From positions 211,669 to 275,668 of the forward strand of contig PUQB01000309.1 in the NCBI GenBank assembly GCA_003024785.1: DNA of 64,000 nucleotides. Reading direction: 5' to 3'. Positions 52,645-64,000 of the stretch are shown one piece after another. A model generated the notes under the pieces. The model searched no databases. It was not told the origin of the DNA and saw only the letters and a program-made list of their open reading frames with translations. The first letter of the stretch is position 1. Every line of letters starts with the position of its first letter. The translations under genes were made by a program, and so were the position numbers. The stretch is from Selaginella tamariscina. Its lineage: Eukaryota > Streptophyta > Lycopodiopsida > Selaginellales > Selaginellaceae.

Positions 52645-53310
52645 TCATGCGTAATATGGCTTAAGAAATTTGCTTGTTGGTGTAGTTTGCCTGGTTTGTG
52701 GATGATTTGAAAGTCGAACTCCTGCAGTAATAAGAACTAGTTTACTATCTCTTACAGAAAATACGCACTTTTCTGGATTAAGAGTTATATTATTTAATCG
52801 GCATTTTCCAAAACATTTCGTTAAAAAGTTTAGGTGTTTATCTTGGGCTCCATAAATGCTAAAATCGTCCAAGAAAACTTTCATAAACGTAATCAAATAA
52901 TCCCGGAATGTTTCACTAACCAAACGTTGGAAGGTAAATGGTGCATTGCATAGCCCAAAAGGCATAACGCGATACACATATGTACCCCAAGGACTAATGA
53001 ATGCTATTTTCGGTTGATCCGCTGGATCCACTTGTACTTGGTTATATCCTGAAAATCTGTACAGAAAGGAGTACATTTCGTGTCCTGCTACTGTATCCAA
53101 CAATTCTTCGGTGAATGGTATTGGGTACGTATCCTGCTTTGTTACATCGTTCAATTTCTTATAATTGATGCAGATACGTAATTTGCTATTTTTCTTTGGT
53201 ATTACGACAATTGGTGATAACCATTGCGGGTTTTCAATTGGATATATGAATCCGGCCTGTAATAATTTGTTCACTTCTTCTCTAACTTTCGCCAAGAATG
53301 TTGGATTCAT
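52645..53310 (-). pseudogene. Gypsy reverse transcriptase fragment
   Basis: A 221-codon open stretch with the usual RT order: LLQAGFIYPIENPQWLSPIV, IPKKNSKLRICINYKKLND, PWGTYVYRVMPFGLCNAPFT and VFLDDFSIYG. The catalytic FLDD box is intact. The upstream box reads LYRFSGYNQVQVD where the family has L-D-G-F/Y-S-G-Y, so one of the three catalytic Asp residues is lost. This alone should inactivate it. Confidence 0.85.
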
Positions 53311-54749
53311 TCGATATGCTTGTTGTTTCTTGGGGACTACATGTGGTAGTAGTTCTATTTATGGGTATAAATTGTGGGTGGAACTCCCTTGAGATCTTTG
53401 TAACTCCAAGCAAAGACATCTGCATTTGAGTACAGTTATCAGCTTGTCTTCGGTATTCTGGTTCAAGATCGACTGCTATTCGTACCTTTCGGGGTCCATA
53501 TTCACTTGTTTTAATTTTAACTTCTTCAATCTTCTCATTCGTCGTAATTTCTAGTTTTTGTTGAGTCCGTATTCTCTGTTCGTGCTCTGTCTCGAATTAT
53601 AATTATTATTGCAGAGGTTGTTTAAACTTATCCGTCAGTCCGAGAGTATCCATATGTTGCTGTTGTTAATTACTAGTAGTTGTCTTTTCTGAGTTTTCCT
53701 CTTCTAGTGTCATTTGGTATAAATCAGCTTGTGCTATCTTTACGAGGTCTGGATTGCTTTCGAAAAGGAGTTTTTCTTCTTCCTTGTTCAAGCCGTAATG
53801 CCAGTCGAAATCCTCTATTCGTAATGGTCGAGTTGGTTATTCGATTGGCTTTTTCTGTTGTGTTCGAACAACTGCTTCTTGTTCATTCTTATGGAGTACC
53901 ATTTCGTCATGCTCTCAATTATGTCGTACTTTTGCATCTCTTAACCATGGTCTTCCCAGTAATATCTGGTATGGTTTGCTCGTTTGCTCGATACATAGTA
54001 CGACCAAAGACACGTTAAACTTGATTCCTGCAATTTCCATACATACAGATCTGATTATACTAATAGGTCTGACTTTCCTCTGATCAGCCATCTGTACTAA
54101 GAAGGGTGCATTTTCAATAGGCCCAAGACCCAATTGTTTGCAAGTCTGCTCTTCAATTATATTCACTCATGAATCTCCATCAATAGGTATGTTCTGAATA
54201 TTGTTTTTGCCGATTCGAGCCGTAATCATTGGTACTTCTTTATCCCAATCCTTCTCATCTGTCAGAACTTCTGTGGTATTCACTCCCACTTGACTTGTGT
54301 CGGTTTGAATGTTGCTCATGTCCAAAGCATTGGTTATTTGCATTCGCAAAAATGGTGCTAATGTCAGTAACTCTCTTATAGTTAACTGTATAGGTTGTTG
54401 CAGAATCACAGTAACAATACGATCTCCAAGTGGTACTGTTGATGTGAATTGCTGTGAATACATGCTCATTTCATTAGGCATAGAGTCTTGATTTTCCTCT
54501 TGCTGCATTTTCTGAATTTGATCAGTCACTCTTTGTACTGTAGCCTTCTATTTCTCCCAATTATTGCATATTGGTTCTTCTTTGGTTGGTTCAGCCCGTA
54601 CTTGTTTGGCCCGTGTTACAGCATACGTCTCAGTTGAGGGTAATTCTGTATCTTGTTCCCATTTGCACTCGTAATTTTGTTCTTCATGGTCATCTGCTAG
54701 ATCATTCCCTTGTTGAACTTCAATTCTCCGTGTCGCTGGTTCAGTAGGA

Positions 54750-55340
54750 GATGTTCCGGTGTTAAATTCGCATTGTGGACATTTTGGTGAATAATGTCCC
54801 ATCTCACCACATGTGTAACAACGAATACTATTGAGTTGATTACATTAAGTAGAATAGTGTCCTTTTTCTCCACATCTAAAACATGTCACATTTGGATTCT
54901 GACCTTGTAATGCTGGTGGAGGTGGTATTGGTGGTAATAAAAGTGGTCCTGTCTATGCTAGGGCTGGTAATAAAGACTGTCCCCTACGTGATATTTCCAT
55001 ATTATTACCTTGTCGAAAAAATGCTCCAGATTCATGAGGAAATCTCCTTCCATTGCCATTCCTACGTTCCCCATTATACGCTCTTTGTGGATAATCATAC
55101 GAATTAGTATTTCGTGATTGTGAATAATCATATGAATTCGTATTCTAGTTGTTGTTCCGTCTGGGTGGTAGTGGAAAATTCTCAGTACGTCCAATCATTT
55201 GTTGGGTTTTATATCCCGTAGTTCGACATTGTCTCGTTTCATGTCCTATTCCTCCACACATCTAACACTTGGGTAGTCTACATTCAGAAGCATTATGTCC
55301 TTCATTTATGCATGTTGTACAAAATAATGTTTTAGTTCTT
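54750..55340 (-). pseudogene. Gag region with four CCHC zinc knuckles
   Basis: Four CCHC units can be read on the minus strand in one short region: CTTCINEGHNASEC, CGGIGHETRQC with its first Cys, CFRCGEKGHYST-C and CYTCGEMGHYSPKC. TAG or TAA interrupts some. Most gypsy gags have one or two knuckles. Confidence 0.65.
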
Positions 55341-55549: not shown

Positions 55550-57862
55550 AGGTTGTTCATTCACAGAGGTGTTCATCAGCATTCAGTCAGCCCCTCAGTG
55601 TCAGCTTCAAATGTTCAACGTGCCAGAGCTAGTGTCAGCAATGCGGTAAAGAGCAGTCTGCGAACCAATCAACAAGTGATTGAGTTTCAAGTTGCACGTG
55701 AACTCATCTTTGAAGAACTTTTCAAGGAAGGAGGAGAAGTCTTGTACACTAGTTTACTCTCAAAACTTAAACCTTTACAAACCATTGAAGGTATTTTTCT
55801 TTAACCTTTTTCTTTAGGACTCGGGACTGGATTACACAATCAAGACAGAAGGAGACACACTTTAGAGGGTTACGAGGGTCTTCTGGAGCTGAAGACAAAG
55901 TTGCCAATACCTTTCATTCACGTCATACATGTTCCAGGGATGGAACTGCATGGTGCTGAGGAGCAGCCTTGATCTTCAAAATGACAGTTGAGGGACCGGG
56001 TTCAGGAGTTGACTACATCAGAAGGTGTCAAAGTGGAGGAGACCTTCATGATCAATGGGTTGTTTGGACCACACACACCGTATACCAGACTGGCGACAAT
56101 AATTGGAATACACCTTTATGACCCATTGTAAGTTGTAGAACACTTCATAACACTTTCTAATCTTTGTTATCTAATGCTCTCTTACAGTGTCAGATCCATG
56201 GTCACTATAGCTTACGCAGATATGTGCCACGAAGATAATGTTGCAGTGCTGAAGTTCTTGAACACAATGCTAGAGGTTTGTAAGAAACAGGGTTTGGAGA
56301 ATGTAACTTTGCTGGTTTCATGTCGGATGAGGCTGGAGCGATATGGATAGCCTTGCGCAAGTATTCAACAACGGAGCAAAGATGAAAGGAGGGAAAGAAG
56401 CTGTTGTTTCACTTTATGCAATATGTGCGTCAGTGACAAAAAATGGATCGCAGAAGAACACATGAAGCTTGCTCGTGCCTGGCCTGCAGCACTGAATGAA
56501 CAATCTAAGAAAGAACAACTAGCAATTCTCGAGTCTTTTTGGGAAGGACGAGCGTCAAACATTCGTGCTTTGAAGACATGGCTGTCTTGGTGGATCAGGC
56601 ATGAGGACCACATCTCCATGGCGAACTGGGAGACATGACAGAAGGACTCGCGAGCGTTCCAACTACAAACAATGCTGAAGTGCAAGAAGAGCAAGATTGG
56701 CCAAAAGAGTACCACTGCTGGAGGCGACAATGTTAGACCTCACCGATGCAGTTCTGCAGAGTGCGAAGGTGAAAGCGGCAATAGAAGGGAGGTATATAGG
56801 GTCAGGTCCTTCGAAGGAAACTCTGTTGAAACGAGTGCAACGCAAACTCTCTGAGGGGAAAAGTGTATCTCCATCAACAATTATCAATCTGGTGGAAGGC
56901 GAGGAACACTTGACCAGCCCGGAGTTCACGAGTACCACTAACGTTCGAGTGCAAACTGTTAGGAGAACAGTCACAGGAACAGAACAGTCTGATGCTCGAC
57001 GTTCACACAGACATGATGTAGAGTACACAGAGCGGGTGGTCCAAAACAACAGGAGAAAGAGGTTAAGGTTCGAAGAGGTTTTGGAGAGAGAGATTGCTCA
57101 AACAGAGTGGGCCATCAGACGAATCGGAGCATCCAGTAAGGTTTGGGGATGAATCAGGAAGGAACTGCTCTTGTGGAAAACCAATCGGTTATCCAAGCAG
57201 AGTGCCAGCACCAGGATTCTATGGAAAACGAATGTACATGATGCCTTGGGGAATGAGGAGTATGTACAACAGATGATGTGGTTCTGCCCAAAAGATTCAG
57301 GGTGTTTCACGCGGCCAAACGGCAAAATTCTTCAGTCAAGAATTCCAACACCACCAACGGTTTGGCCTGTGCTCAAGGAAACGAAGCTGACAAGTGAGGA
57401 GGTCAGAGAACTACAGGATGCAGGCTTTGTTCTGGAAGGTTTATACGGAAAGAGTAGATGAGGGTCAGAAGGACAAAACACCATCGCCACCACGTGGAGC
57501 TTGGATCTACAACAATTCCACCTTTCGAAGGACGCATGGTCCGGACTCCAACAAAAATGTCTAAGGAACAAGAGAAGAATTTCCACAAGGCCAAGACGTT
57601 TTTAGGTCGAGTGAGAAATGTTGAAGTGACAGTTAGAGGACGGAAGGAGATTTTCGTTGTGTTAGCAAGAAATGACTCTGCAAAGGTGACTATCAGTACT
57701 TATCCTACATACAATTGTTTACCTTTCAGAAGAGTAAAAGTTGGAGCCCATGTGTACACATGTACTTCGTTACAGCCGTGTGCTTGGCTTGAGCCCGGAA
57801 CATCACATACTTTCTACAAAGGTGCTTGCTCAGTGAGATGGAGGTCCAACGTTTGCTGGTGA
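55550..57862 (+). mobile_element. MULE-like transposase relic
   Basis: Plus-strand pieces in several frames form one transposase-like protein. They are ASNVQRARASVSNAVKSSLR (55600-55660), a block with GLLELKTKLPIPFIHVIHVP (about 55880-55940), FAGFMSDEAGAIWIALRKVF (about 56305-56370), MKLARAWPAALNEQSKKEQL and WEGRASNIRALKTWLSWWIR (56460-56600), and a Cys-containing NCSCGKPIGYPSRVPAPGFY with MMWFCPKDSGCFTRPNGK (57165-57330). The last piece has a SWIM-like arrangement near 57690-57790 (YPTYNCLPFRR, VYTCTSLQPCAW). The D-E pair in MSDEAGA and the SWIM-like tail fit Mutator-like transposases; the assignment is by pattern only. Frames break repeatedly and TIRs were not found. Confidence 0.5.
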
Positions 57863-58145
57863 ATTACAGCAAAGTTCATGACCACTGGTGCTACAAGGAT
57901 AAATGGTATACATCAAAATGCTTTGTTTGAATACTAACTTATTGAACTTTTTTATACAGTATTAAAAAAAACTCCAAAAATTTAAATGATTTATTTGTTG
58001 GTCGGCAAATATTAAGCCAGTGGGCATATTAAAAAAACTTATATCAAAAAATATTCTTGAGAATATGCTAGAATATACCTGGAATATCCATGAATATACT
58101 AGAATATTCCGAAGCCTCCTTTTCGCCAACACCCATATATTTATG
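57863..58145. other. AT-rich spacer
   Basis: Contains a run of related gaatat motifs near 58060-58110 (gagaatatgctagaatatacc and similar). No gene is supported. Confidence 0.4.
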
Positions 58146-58599: not shown

Positions 58600-60290
58600 T
58601 ATGTAAAAGATACTACCTGAGGAAATGATTGAGTAACTGCAGTTGTTAGGACCTGCCTGCGTGAAGAATAGAACCTGGTTTCACCACTGGGTGTATGGAT
58701 ATGGAATCCTGTTTAACCACTGTACTAGTGGCTAATGATGTAAGTTGGTCAGGTAGCAGCTGCTTCTTAATATACTCCTTGAGGTTCACACATAAGGTCA
58801 TATTGAGTTCAGAGCACGCGCAGTCATACATTTTTAGCGCATATAGTAATATTCATTTACATTTGGAGCATTATGAATACGATCTTGTGTGTGCGTGCGC
58901 GCGTGGGCTGACACCTCTGTACCATACGGAACGTATATGTGATGTCCGCAAAATGTGTCAGCACGGTGTATGCATACACATATCTACAGATATACATAGT
59001 TGATAAATCATTAACACATGAGTAAATTTAACATAAAAACCTCATCCCATTATGTTTTATATCCTGTTTGGTTTTGCTAATTATTGTTTTACCATGCAAA
59101 GTAAAGCTCCTCCAGTCTCTGAATGGAACATGGACGCAACTACTATATTGTTGGGATTAGAAAAAGAACCTTATATATCTAGACATATACGTTTATAAAC
59201 TCTCATAAGAAATAAAATTTATTATGTAAGTGTATAGGGCTGTTGCCACTGCACTATGAAGGTTATTCATTGCATGAATAAGTTCAGATACCGAAGACCA
59301 CGTACCTGCATAAGCATTTTTCAGTGCGGATTCTTCGAAATGAAACTTATTCAATTAAATAAATGATATTATTAGGATACTCTAATTGTTTTATGATTAA
59401 AAAGTTTCTAAAACTATAATATATTTTAATAGTTTTATCACTAATAAAATTCTATGAATATAAACCATTAAAGTTTAAATTAGAAATGAGAATTTAAATA
59501 ATTCAATTAAAATAAATTTTAAAGATCACTTTTATCTTAAATACATCGTTAAGACGTATACATTTTAAACCACATGCACATAAAATATTATATAAATTTT
59601 GTTTAAAGAGTCACAACTATAGTCTCAAAAACGGCTAGGCTTATTTAGAGGTTGATTTTCCACCGATTTTTTTTTTTTTTGAAAAAACGGTCAAATAAAT
59701 TTTTGTACATATATGTAAACATAAAAATGATAGTATATACTCTCAATATCTTATTGAAACTGGGCATTTTAAGAATATTCATTTCTATGTATACAATTAA
59801 AACTGATTAACAAAAGATTAAACAATTATAAATTGATATAAATTTATTCTGACATTTATTACAACATTCACACTTGGCTATATTTCCCAATTCCTATTTA
59901 TTAATCATAAAAATATTTAATATAATTTATATAAAATGTACTAATTGTGTATACTGTCCTCGTGTGTTTGTTATAGACACCAATAACAGACAAGTTCCCG
60001 CTCATGAACAAAACTATAGCAGGCCAAGTCTCCCCACTCTTCCATATATTCACCAAGTTACTTAAAAAGATTTATATAGTACTAAACTGTGCTCAAATCA
60101 CTCTTCCATGTATTCACCCAGTACTAAACTGTGCTCAAATGAAAGTATTATTTAATTTCGTGTATTTTATATATATAAAATAGAGAATTATACAACCTGT
60201 CAGTGAACAAATTAAAATCTTAATGATAATTAATATAATTAAATTATATACTAAATCATAGAATATTCCAATAGATTCCTTTGTTTAAGG
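58600..60290. other. AT-rich intergenic DNA
   Basis: Includes the 48-bp repeat at 59723-59770 and a duplicated agtactaaactgtgctcaaa near 60078 and 60119. No gene is supported. Confidence 0.45.
59723..59770. repeat. 48-bp repeat, left copy flanking the Crinkler/RHS-like gene
   Basis: aaaaatgatagtatatactc followed by tcaatatcttattgaaac and gggcatttt. It matches 62796-62844 with about two mismatches in the same orientation. Confidence 0.85.
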
Positions 60291-60293
60291 GAC

Positions 60294-60310
60294 TAGGGTT
60301 AGGGTTTGGG
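60294..60310 (+). promoter_or_regulatory. Telobox-like sequence before the start codon
   Basis: tagggttagggtttggg ends two bases before the ATG at 60312. It matches the plant telomere-type motif found in many leaders of plant genes, where it marks transcription starts. It supports a plant-like promoter for a gene of possibly foreign ancestry. Confidence 0.5.
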
Positions 60311-60311
60311 C

Positions 60312-62241
60312 ATGAAGCGGCAGCGCGTGCATGACGATTCTGTGGATGGGGCTTGGATTTCTGTGGTCCTTGACCAGGCTAAGGATGTCTTGAAGGATCT
60401 TGAGGCCGTGTATGGCGTTATGCCAGGACCAGATTTCTTGTGGGATACGAGCAAATTTCAGACGCTTATACAACCTACAGCGTTCTTCAGCGTCGATTCT
60501 TCGAGGGAATTCAGGTACATAGGCAGGGCCAGAGCTGAAGATTTGTTTCGAGAGATGGTAGCTCTCCAAGGCGGTGCTGTGTTGCAGATTCAGGGCGCCA
60601 AAGGTTCTGGGAAGAGCACTGCAGTGAGCTCAATAGTTGGCTATATGCTCTCGGGAATGAAGCGGAAAGTGGTTTACATATCTGCCGATGGTTTCATCGC
60701 TGATCCGGTACACGTGTTGCGGCACGCATTGCTGGTGGCAAGCGGCGGTGGTGACCAACGTTTGGCTTGTCTAGACGAGATGGAGCAGCTGAGCAAGTGG
60801 TGTTTAGCTCACGCATTGGATCCCTTGCTATTCGTGATAGACGACTGGGATAGGTTTGAAAACTTTCCAAATGAGCAGGCGGCTCTATTCAAAGCAGTGT
60901 CGCGTCACCACATCCTCGTTAAGACTTCGTCAACCAACAGCAGGGAGCGCAGATATTTTTGCTGCCAGTGACAAGTTTCCTCCAACATTCGACTTCGACG
61001 GTCCTTACACGGATGCTGAGCTCCAAACATGGATTGGACAGTCAAGCCTTCAGAATGACAAGCTAGAAGCACTTGACTGTCTAACCGGTGGGATGCCCCT
61101 GCTATTGCGCTTTTACGAAGAAGTGAAAGGGGACGGCCGGCATTTTAGGCAGAAAATTGAGGAGCCATATACAAGCAAGCTGTTTGAGAAACTGATTCGA
61201 TTGCAGACCACCAAGGCGCAGCTTGCATCTGCCATAGAAATGGTGACTACAGGTGTCCGAGGTATTCATCTCAAGCAGCCGGTGGACTTGACGTGCTTGT
61301 ACAAGGAGGGCCACAGATTCAAGCTTCTGAGCCCATACTTGCGGACCAGAGCTGAGTACTGTATCATGGAACAACAAAAGGAATTGCAGAGCGGCCTTGA
61401 CGATGCTGCAGTCCAGAGTTGGGCAAGGGCTGTTAGAATGGACTGCCTTGTGAGAGGCAGAAATCCTGCGCGAGCAGGCTGGAATGTGGAAGGCCTGGTC
61501 ATAGCTGTGATGAGGTATCAAGGGAAGTTGTGGGATGGGTTACCGTTCGAGCACTACATGACTTACGAGCATGGCTGTGAAGCAGCTCTGCTTCGAACGC
61601 TGCTGAGGGACGACCTCAGTGAGGGCGTGTTGGTAGGACCTGTTGCGTTCAACGAGAAAGCTTTGGATGTCATCTACCTCAAACTAGATGTGGAGACCAG
61701 CATCTTGACAATCAAGGCTGTGCAAATCACAATTTCCAAATGGAAGAAAAAGCGTAGGAAAAGATCACACAAGGTATGGCAAGAGGAAGTTGTACCCAGG
61801 TGGCTCTCTGAGGAATGGGATTTAGAGCATCAATTCATTTACATAATGCCTGAGAAGGTGAACGTGAAGGATGAGGGAGTCCCTGAGGACTTGGTCAGTT
61901 ACGTTGCTGCTTGCCATGCACCCGCAACGAGTTCCGCGAGCGACGAGGCAGAGGACAATGAGGAGGATATTGATACGCAATATGGAGCGGAGCAGTACGA
62001 AGGAGTGGATTTGGCTCAAGTTAAGAGCCAGCCTGTTGACTACAAGAAGCTTGGGGATGTCCACGGAGGCCTCGCAGAATTTGATAAGCTGCTCAACCTT
62101 CAGGAACCTACAAAGGTGGAGAAGAAGGAAGTTCAGCAGTGTGGTGGTACGGTGGTGGAAAATGGCCTTCCACGGGCATGCCGAAGGTGGTCTTGCACAG
62201 ATGCAAAGGTTTATTACTGTTGTCCTGCTCACGAGCAGTAA
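60312..62241 (+). CDS. Crinkler/RHS-like P-loop NTPase with C-terminal nuclease-like domain
   Basis: Intronless, about 640 residues if one frame break near 60945 is an assembly error. Residues 1-90 are helical and contain REFRYIGRARAEDLFREM. Walker A is GAKGSGKST (residues 95-103). Walker B is LLFVIDDWD (172-180), followed by a polar strand ILVKTSSTNS (sensor-like). After the break come DIFAASDKFPPTFDFDGPYT and LTGGMPLLLRFYEEVKG. The C-terminal part has LRTLLRDDLSEG, then ALDVIYLKLD and IKAVQITISKW, matching the D...Q-x-T pattern of the restriction-endonuclease-like domain in RHS and Crinkler proteins. A KWKKKRRKRSHK cluster looks like a nuclear signal. An acidic segment and a Cys/His tail follow. 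Crinkler/RHS proteins are effector or selfish-element-associated in other eukaryotes; the role in a plant is unknown. Confidence 0.7.
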
Positions 62242-62795: not shown

Positions 62796-62844
62796 AAAAA
62801 TGATAGTATATACTCTCAATATCTTATTGAAACCGGGTATTTTT
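62796..62844. repeat. 48-bp repeat, right copy flanking the Crinkler/RHS-like gene
   Basis: Matches 59723-59770 in the same orientation. It is followed by non-coding DNA to about 63000 with a duplicated ccrggattagagtc segment near 62897 and 62936, which may be LTR sequence. Confidence 0.85.
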
Positions 62845-63489: not shown

Positions 63490-64000
63490 TAAGAAAGTCA
63501 CATATCCCAATCCGTATGGTCAGGATTTATGTATTTGGCGAGCATGTCTTTGAAAGTTCTGTTTAGCCACTCCACCAAACCATCAATCTCATAATGATAA
63601 GCTGATGCAAAGGATTGGTTGATTTGCACTCGTTGCGTCATCAAGGTTACCAGTTCTGTCACATGATTAGGACCCTGATTCAATAAGATTTGCTAGAGAC
63701 AACCATGCTTCAGCACTACTTGAGCAACCAACAAGAATTTGATGATAGAAGTTGTTGCAGCATCTGGCAAAGCACACACTTCCCACCCATCAAGTTAAGT
63801 AATCAAAGCATACAATGATGTAATGATTACCAAATTGTGACACGGGAAATGGCCCATGACGTCATAGGCTATCAACTCGAAGGGGTGAGAAGTGGTAGTG
63901 GGAGGAAGTGTAGACATGTTATGCCGTTGACAATCTAAACATGTATAAATGTACTCATGCAAGTCTTGCTGAAGTCGGGGCCAATACAGATACTATCAAA
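63490..64000 (-). mobile_element. Ty3/gypsy integrase relic, continues past the window
   Basis: Minus-strand pieces follow gypsy integrase order: a zinc-binding end CLDCQRHNM (about 63915-63945), FELIAYDVMGHFP (about 63850-63890), then QGPNHVTELVTLMTQRVQIN, QSFASAYHYEIDGLVEWLNR and DMLAKYINPDHTDWDM (63498-63683). Frames break between them. The upstream reverse transcriptase is outside the window. Confidence 0.75.

What the first reader, a model, noticed from the sequence alone, without database searches (positions are those of the whole stretch)
60312..62241. A Crinkler/RHS-like NTPase-nuclease gene in a plant-like genome
The sequence shows Walker A GAKGSGKST, Walker B LLFVIDDWD, and a C-terminal D...QIT pattern. 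These are the hallmarks of proteins known as Crinkler effectors in oomycetes and fungi and RHS proteins in trypanosomes, which pair a P-loop NTPase with a restriction-endonuclease-like domain. An intronless gene with a basic nuclear-signal-like cluster and a telobox leader suggests a working plant gene. It could be a host nuclease system, a relic of transfer, or a selfish-element partner. This is the most likely candidate for an undescribed system in the window.
Basis: partly seen in the sequence, partly recalled or inferred. Interest (0 to 1): 0.85.

Follow-up and report, generated by a model that had tools for sequence, protein, structure and literature searches.

The report
Frame-broken plant NTPase–nuclease family copy
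A lycophyte-like plant genome carries a large, mostly broken family of genes that pair an ATP-binding switch with a probable DNA-cutting domain, and the flagged gene is one of these copies with its reading frame interrupted.

Summary
The motifs are real, but 60312-62241 is not one open gene: an NTPase frame stops at 60969 and a second frame carries the rest to 62239. In 21 of 33 other loci fetched from the same genome an ORF runs through this place. Of 13 copies compared, 6 lack exactly one net base there and 7 differ by more. So this copy is frameshifted as assembled; an assembly error is not excluded. The genome (300.7 Mb, 1391 contigs; probably Selaginella tamariscina) holds about 37 family places; 2 of the 33 fetched have one frame over both halves. 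The C-terminal domain keeps E, D and Q where a PD-(D/E)XK nuclease would need them, and a modest AlphaFold model shows such an order of elements. Foldseek found nothing significant; 9 of 50 weak PDB rows are restriction-type nucleases. No Pfam Crinkler or RHSP match was listed. Best reading: a Crinkler/RHS-like NTPase + winged-helix + nuclease-like protein with a C-terminal Cys/His knuckle, a kind already reported from land plants.

The parts
60294..60307 (+). telobox-like TAGGGTTAGGGTTT directly 5' of the start codon
   Evidence: family-wide tendency (18 of 28 starts, window included, within 80 nt)
60312..60968 (+). first open frame: N-terminal ~65 aa and P-loop NTPase, 219 aa, stop at 60969
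60594..60620 (+). Walker A GAKGSGKST
   Evidence: G-A-x-G-x-G-K-S invariant in the 9 rows of A3
60825..60851 (+). Walker B LLFVIDDWD
   Evidence: first D invariant in A3
60841..60968 (+). overlap of the two open frames; the change of frame lies here
   Evidence: 21 of 33 fetched loci have an ORF through it
60946..62241 (+). second open frame (open from 60841): rest of NTPase, winged-helix-like part, REase-like domain, acidic linker, Cys/His knuckle; stop at 62239
61126..61380 (+). helices and beta hairpin between NTPase and nuclease-like domain (winged-helix-like; inferred)
   Evidence: secondary structure of model m325061e4854a
61462..61845 (+). probable PD-(D/E)XK (REase-like) domain: RNPARxGWNVE ... 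D ... QIT ... K.SH
   Evidence: only weak fold matches
61489..61491 (+). conserved Glu in a helix (E122 of the piece from 61126)
   Evidence: 19 of 20 aligned rows (6 of 26 rows gapped)
61666..61668 (+). conserved Asp (D181)
   Evidence: 20 of 23 aligned rows (3 of 26 gapped)
61723..61731 (+). QIT near the end of a strand (Q200-I201-T202)
   Evidence: Q in 19 of 20, E in 1 of 20; third place T in 12, I in 5, S in 3 of 20
61738..61773 (+). basic cluster KWKKKRRKRSHK, candidate nuclear signal, also holds conserved K212 and H215
   Evidence: sequence; K 17 of 17, H 19 of 19 aligned rows
62140..62232 (+). C-terminal Cys/His knuckle (CxG...C...YYC...H)
   Evidence: alignment; 3 of 26 members match Pfam DUF5763, best E 0.00036, the window copy itself does not
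59723..59770 (+). 48-nt direct repeat, left copy (flanks the gene)
62796..62843 (+). 48-nt direct repeat, right copy, 96% identical to the left one

Best explanation
The locus is one frame-interrupted copy of a lineage-expanded plant gene family of Crinkler/RHS-like (CR) architecture: short N-terminus, STAND/AAA-like P-loop NTPase, winged-helix-like segment, PD-(D/E)XK-like nuclease domain, acidic linker, Cys/His knuckle. Shown here: the two frames, the family, its conserved residues, paralogues that are open over both halves, past purifying selection. Inferred: the protein enters the nucleus, the NTPase binds ATP and gates the nuclease, the winged helix and knuckle hold nucleic acid, and the nuclease domain cuts or holds invading or mobile DNA. 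The window copy as assembled would stop after the NTPase core and would not make the nuclease half.
For: Frames and stops. NTPase motifs, and weak NACHT, nSTAND5 and AAA_16 matches in 9 of 9 members of A3. Family of 93 matched pieces in the own genome, a further subfamily on C460. L009 and L019 each one open frame over both halves (L009 ends before the knuckle). E, D, Q, K, S and H conserved. AF2 with 26 sequences: pLDDT 67.7, pTM 0.60; E122 in helix 114-132, D181 just before strand 182-188, Q200 near the end of strand 193-201, then helix 213-227 and strand 232-240. Weak fold list: 9 of the 50 PDB rows shown are AddAB, BstEII, FokI, MspJI or SgrAI; the viral list holds two PD-(D/E)XK proteins, one Mrr-like protein and several UL24-type ones, among many unrelated rows (that UL24 is of this fold is recalled). 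dN/dS 0.33 against L009, 0.15 in the nuclease-like domain. NTPase + HTH + REase is the order described for Phytophthora CRNs.
Against: No Pfam hit for the C-terminal half of the window copy at E<=10. No Foldseek match at E<=0.001, and the top two PDB rows are PopP2, no nuclease. PF07999 and PF20147 found nothing in the genome, but no control genome rang either, so this is uninformative. The usual catalytic Lys of (D/E)xK (recalled) is T, I or S here, so cutting activity is open. Weak matches to other things exist: PADLOC RTasSLATT E 0.0041 and NCBIfam REP transposase E 0.058 in the C-terminal half, HTH_Tnp_4 E 0.023 in 1 of 26 members. No expression data. The first AF2 run, on the single sequence, was useless (pLDDT 34.9).
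Confidence: 0.68

Rival explanations
1. The frame change is an assembly error and the gene is intact in the plant.
For: L018 is an allele-like copy (14 substitutions in 1885 aligned coding positions) but differs by 31 gap events in the coding part and 43 in the flanks, an indel excess as expected of poorly corrected long reads (inference), and one of its ORFs reads through this place. So the assembly probably holds indel errors.
Against: Against L015 and L011 the window copy shows few gap events (8 and 9) beside 108 and 109 substitutions, so the window contig does not look generally poor. Many other copies carry in-frame stops.
Confidence: 0.35
2. A short GT-AG intron, not a frameshift, joins the frames.
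For: 50 GT-AG pairs of at least 40 nt would keep a frame open; one (60854-60968) ends in a pyrimidine-rich acceptor.
Against: In 21 of 33 fetched loci an ORF runs through this stretch, and in A3 six paralogues that span it on both sides (L009, L012, L015, L019, L025, L028) code it as protein. The candidate introns have 45-57% A+T, like the gene (49%).
Confidence: 0.05
3. A STAND-type NTPase of another kind (NACHT-like) whose C-terminal domain is not a nuclease.
For: Best profile matches are NACHT, nSTAND5 and AAA types; no significant nuclease fold match. NACHT NTPases are reported from Selaginella moellendorffii (PMC4773052, abstract only).
Against: Conserved E, D, Q, K and S-H and the modelled order of elements; the nuclease-like domain is the most constrained part against L009.
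Confidence: 0.2
4. The gene is cargo or a protein of a mobile element, a selfish unit of about 2.2 kb.
For: Some copies share only the gene unit with sharp ends (L010/L017 98% over 2.2 kb; L009 and L016 share the stretch from the ATG to near the stop). Direct repeats flank the gene in the window and in 5 of 15 other loci tested. CR genes are linked to transposons in other lineages.
Against: No transposase or reverse transcriptase was named in the unit; no A-run of 10 or more in the stretches checked downstream of four copies, and no terminal inverted repeat seen by eye in L010/L017. 10 of 15 loci tested show no such repeats. Other copies are plain larger duplicates (L009/L012, L013/L021).
Confidence: 0.15

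Closest known systems
CR (Crinkler-RHS-type) proteins of land plants, Zhang et al. 2016, known here only through PMC5289972 (section 11 and passages read)
   Same: Encoded by a plant; P-loop NTPase with a REase-superfamily domain is a common CR make-up; possible action on invading DNA
   Different: Eudicot ones are said to have Myb-like HTH headers; no Pfam header was found here, and a C-terminal Cys/His knuckle is present. Zhang et al. was not readable, so sequences were not compared.
Oomycete and fungal Crinkler (CRN) effectors
   Same: Order NTPase, HTH-like part, REase-like part; basic nuclear-signal-like cluster
   Different: No Ubl header match (PF20147) and no LFLAK-like or HVLV..P motif in the two pieces tested, 60312-60968 and 61126-62238; secretion was not tested
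Retrotransposon hot spot (RHS) proteins of trypanosomes (Pfam PF07999)
   Same: NTPase and nuclease-like halves; a large family with many broken copies (the RHS side recalled)
   Different: No match to the RHSP profile
STAND/NACHT NTPases of early plants (PMC4773052, abstract seen)
   Same: P-loop NTPase with weak NACHT-like profile scores
   Different: NACHT score below its cut-off where bits were shown; C-terminal part looks nuclease-like

Membership tests
CR (Crinkler-RHS-type) proteins | P-loop NTPase domain with Walker A and B | tested here: met
CR (Crinkler-RHS-type) proteins | C-terminal REase-superfamily domain | tested here: inconclusive
   conserved E, D, Q and modelled topology, but no significant fold or profile match
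CR (Crinkler-RHS-type) proteins | sequence similarity to the published CR NTPase and CR-REase families | not testable with these tools
   the defining paper is not held and no collection of eukaryote genomes other than the own one was searched
Crinkler effectors (oomycete/fungal type) | Ubl header domain with LFLAK-like motif (PF20147) | tested here: not met
   not among matches at E<=10 for the window pieces and five paralogue ORFs; not listed nor among the 25 of 41 families shown; motif absent in 60312-60968 and 61126-62238
RHS proteins (PF07999) | match to the RHSP profile | tested here: not met
   not among matches at E<=10 (one search shows 25 of 41 families); genome search 0, controls silent
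NACHT NTPases | NACHT profile above its curated cut-off (26.7 bits) | tested here: not met
   17.4 bits window copy, 22.5 L009, 15.6 L019, 19.1 L025; the best row of A3 has E 2.6e-5, bits not shown
Functional gene | one open frame over both halves | tested here: not met
   for this copy; met in 2 of 33 fetched loci, L009 and L019

The most novel reading that the evidence does not exclude
A lycophyte has expanded its own nuclear CR-type nuclease with a zinc-knuckle tail into an active, fast-turning family that guards the genome against invading or mobile DNA, with open members such as L019 still working and many copies decaying around them.
Probability: 0.2. Interest if true: 0.7.

Novelty: new member of a known kind. 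Interest (0 to 1): 0.4.

Why it matters
If the C-terminal domain cuts DNA, a free-living plant would hold dozens of genes or gene remains for a nuclease type better known from pathogen effectors and trypanosome genomes. Open copies (L009, L019) beside many broken ones make the question of what plants do with CR proteins testable in one species.

Tried and rejected
Sequence searches outside the genome gave no relative: viral contigs, prokaryote genome contigs, plasmids (none; 15 weak records, 10 listed, best listed E 0.7), PDB sequences (none; generic ATPases mainly; four chance-level rows, best E 0.31). PADLOC gave mad8 (E 1.5e-4, NTPase part) and RTasSLATT (E 0.0041, C-terminal half); NCBIfam and PHROGs gave mainly generic ATPases for the first piece and rows of E 0.058 or worse for the second. 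None names the gene. Rfam: nothing in the window at gathering scores. The single-sequence AF2 model was useless. An upstream relic of a second copy near 59313 was dropped: tblastx E 7.1. A retrocopy was considered: no A-run of 10 or more in the downstream stretches checked of L010, L017, L009 and the window.

Rows left out: one search gave 57 pieces; A1 used 56 of them and the window, and aligned poorly; A4 holds the window and 25 of those pieces, chosen by me for length, A2 nine; A3 eight paralogue pieces besides the window. In the telobox count L039, L040, L041 and loci without an N-terminal match beginning by query residue 45 were left out; for L014, L021, L025 and L036 no in-frame ATG was found near, and for L013, L022 and others the start is uncertain. 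The dN/dS table uses HSP-aligned codons only, which favours conserved stretches, and saturated dS gives no ratio for several distant copies. The gap table covers the 13 copies that blastn listed at E<=1e-100, without L039-L041. The codon score was trained on the gene's own two frames.

Full report
What is in the sequence. The span is not one gene as assembled: one frame, from ATG 60312, stops at 60969; the other is open from 60841 and stops at 62239. Codon-use scores, trained on the gene's own two frames, move from the first to the second between about 60900 and 60960. The gene is G+C richer than its left flank (0.47 against 0.32 per 2 kb). The neighbourhood is that of a land plant: a PEP carboxylase piece, a STOP-type zinc finger, an NF-Y/histone-fold ORF and a reverse transcriptase piece among ten ORFs scanned.

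Which genome. The window is part of a 300,702,823-base assembly in 1391 contigs. A review table gives Selaginella tamariscina as 300.73 Mb (PMC10095996, passage seen), close but not identical. The contig number of that assembly is recalled, not checked. I take the source to be probably this lycophyte.

Family. The C-terminal half matches 93 pieces in the genome. Grouped by place by me, these are 34 loci including the window; a query with the divergent member L036 adds two places on C460 and a weak one on C1293 (E 6.3e-4), about 37 in all. The tool calls its counts lower bounds, but some places may be alleles or repeated contigs (L013, L040 and L041 match alike, as do L027 and L039). I fetched the 33 loci other than the window (L009-L041). 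In 2 of 33 (L009, L019) one open frame covers both halves, L009 ending before the knuckle. In 21 of 33 an ORF runs through the place where the window copy changes frame (L040 and L041 are counted). The net gap difference at that place was taken for 13 copies: one base in 6 (L009, L012, L014, L015, L024, L029), two in 3 (L011, L018, L022), four in L020, and 8, 11 and 18 in L016, L027 and L023. So the window copy carries a frameshift of its own or an assembly error. L018 differs from the window in only 14 of 1885 aligned coding positions but in 31 gap events, which suggests that indel errors exist in this assembly. Part of the apparent decay of the family may be of that kind; in-frame stops in many matched pieces suggest that much of it is real.

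Selection. Pairwise dN/dS of the window copy is 0.33 against L009 and 0.20-0.31 against L010, L013, L017 and L027; against the closest copies it is 0.46-0.71 (L011, L014, L015, L018, L020, L022, L024). In the NTPase part it is 0.88-1.29 for five of these seven and lower in L018 (0.53) and L020 (0.70). Of 19 loci with a value in all three parts, the nuclease-like domain is lowest in 12 (L039, like L027, counted), tied in 3 (L013, L040, L041) and not lowest in 4 (L014, L017, L018, L021). I read this as long constraint with recent relaxation.

Domains. NACHT, nSTAND5 and AAA_16 match weakly in 9 of 9 members of A3 (best E 2.6e-5, 1.4e-4, 1.7e-4) and AAA_22 in 6 of 9 (best E 2.5e-6); for the window copy every match is below its cut-off. 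The C-terminal half of the window copy matches no Pfam family at E<=10. In A4 (26 rows) E122 is kept in 19 of 20 aligned rows, D181 in 20 of 23, Q200 in 19 of 20 with E in the other, K212 in 17 of 17, H215 in 19 of 19; the T of QIT only in 12 of 20. AF2 with A4 gave pLDDT 67.7 and pTM 0.60, with E122 inside helix 114-132, D181 just before strand 182-188 and Q200 near the end of strand 193-201, then helix 213-227 and strand 232-240. This is the layout of a PD-(D/E)XK core (recalled). Foldseek gave no match at E<=0.001 in the PDB or viral library. Nine of the 50 PDB rows shown (226 at E<=10) are restriction-type nucleases or AddAB, but the first two rows are not, and I know no base rate. A hairpin and helices before this domain look winged-helix-like. 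The C-terminal Cys/His motif matches DUF5763 in 3 of 26 members, best E 0.00036.

Leader. Telomere-repeat-like heptamers lie within 80 nt before the start in 18 of 28 copies examined, window included, against 16 of 751 80-nt stretches elsewhere in the window. Copies are related and some starts are uncertain, so these are not 18 independent cases. It points to a shared promoter-proximal element.

Mobility. Some copies share only the gene unit with sharp ends, others are larger duplicates. A 48-nt repeat flanks the window gene; flanking repeats were seen in 5 of 15 other loci tested and not in 10. No transposase or reverse transcriptase was named in the unit; retroelement pieces lie nearby. How copies spread is open.

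Comparison. A review of Zhang et al. 2016 (itself not held) reports CR proteins in land plants, the NTPase + HTH + REase order in Phytophthora CRNs, and eudicot CR proteins with Myb-like headers that might act on invading DNA (PMC5289972, passages, section 11). Other papers were seen only as passages (PMC6131194; PMC9815663; PMC11064341; PMC10095996) or abstract and outline (PMC4773052). Paper searches for plant Crinklers were made; that for Crinkler with Selaginella found one paper, seen only in the listing. I do not claim that no such paper exists elsewhere.

Verdict. A frame-interrupted member of an expanded plant family that most likely belongs with CR proteins. The membership is likely but not proven, and the nuclease activity is inferred.

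Noticed in passing
window 59723-59770 and 62796-62843: A 48-nt direct repeat (96%) flanks the gene; other repeats lie on both sides of the copies in L014, L015, L018, L022 and L024.
   Followed up: partly
window 63798-63992, minus strand: Retroelement integrase relic (Integrase_H2C2, E 1.9e-6) about 1.5 kb downstream of the gene; the ORF at 63501-63692 reads integrase-like by eye but has no Pfam match.
   Followed up: partly
window 54170-54844, minus strand: Gag-like piece with CCHC zinc knuckle (E 1.3e-6) and a DUF4100-like part (E 6.1e-4, below cut-off); a reverse transcriptase ORF lies at 52648-53310.
   Followed up: no
window 55900-57900, plus strand: Coding-like stretch of several ORFs; the two scanned have no confident Pfam match.
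   Followed up: no
L010 and L017 (G000 C488 and C450): A 2.2-kb gene unit 98% identical with sharp ends and no flank similarity in the stretches held, as if copied as a unit.
   Followed up: partly
L009 and L016: Copies share sequence from the start codon to near the stop (95%) but not their flanks.
   Followed up: partly
L018 (G000 C482:1500-7500): Allele-like copy of the window locus near a contig end with more gap events than substitutions: probably poorly corrected sequence.
   Followed up: yes
G000 C460:670691-719792: A divergent subfamily of three places around L036.
   Followed up: no
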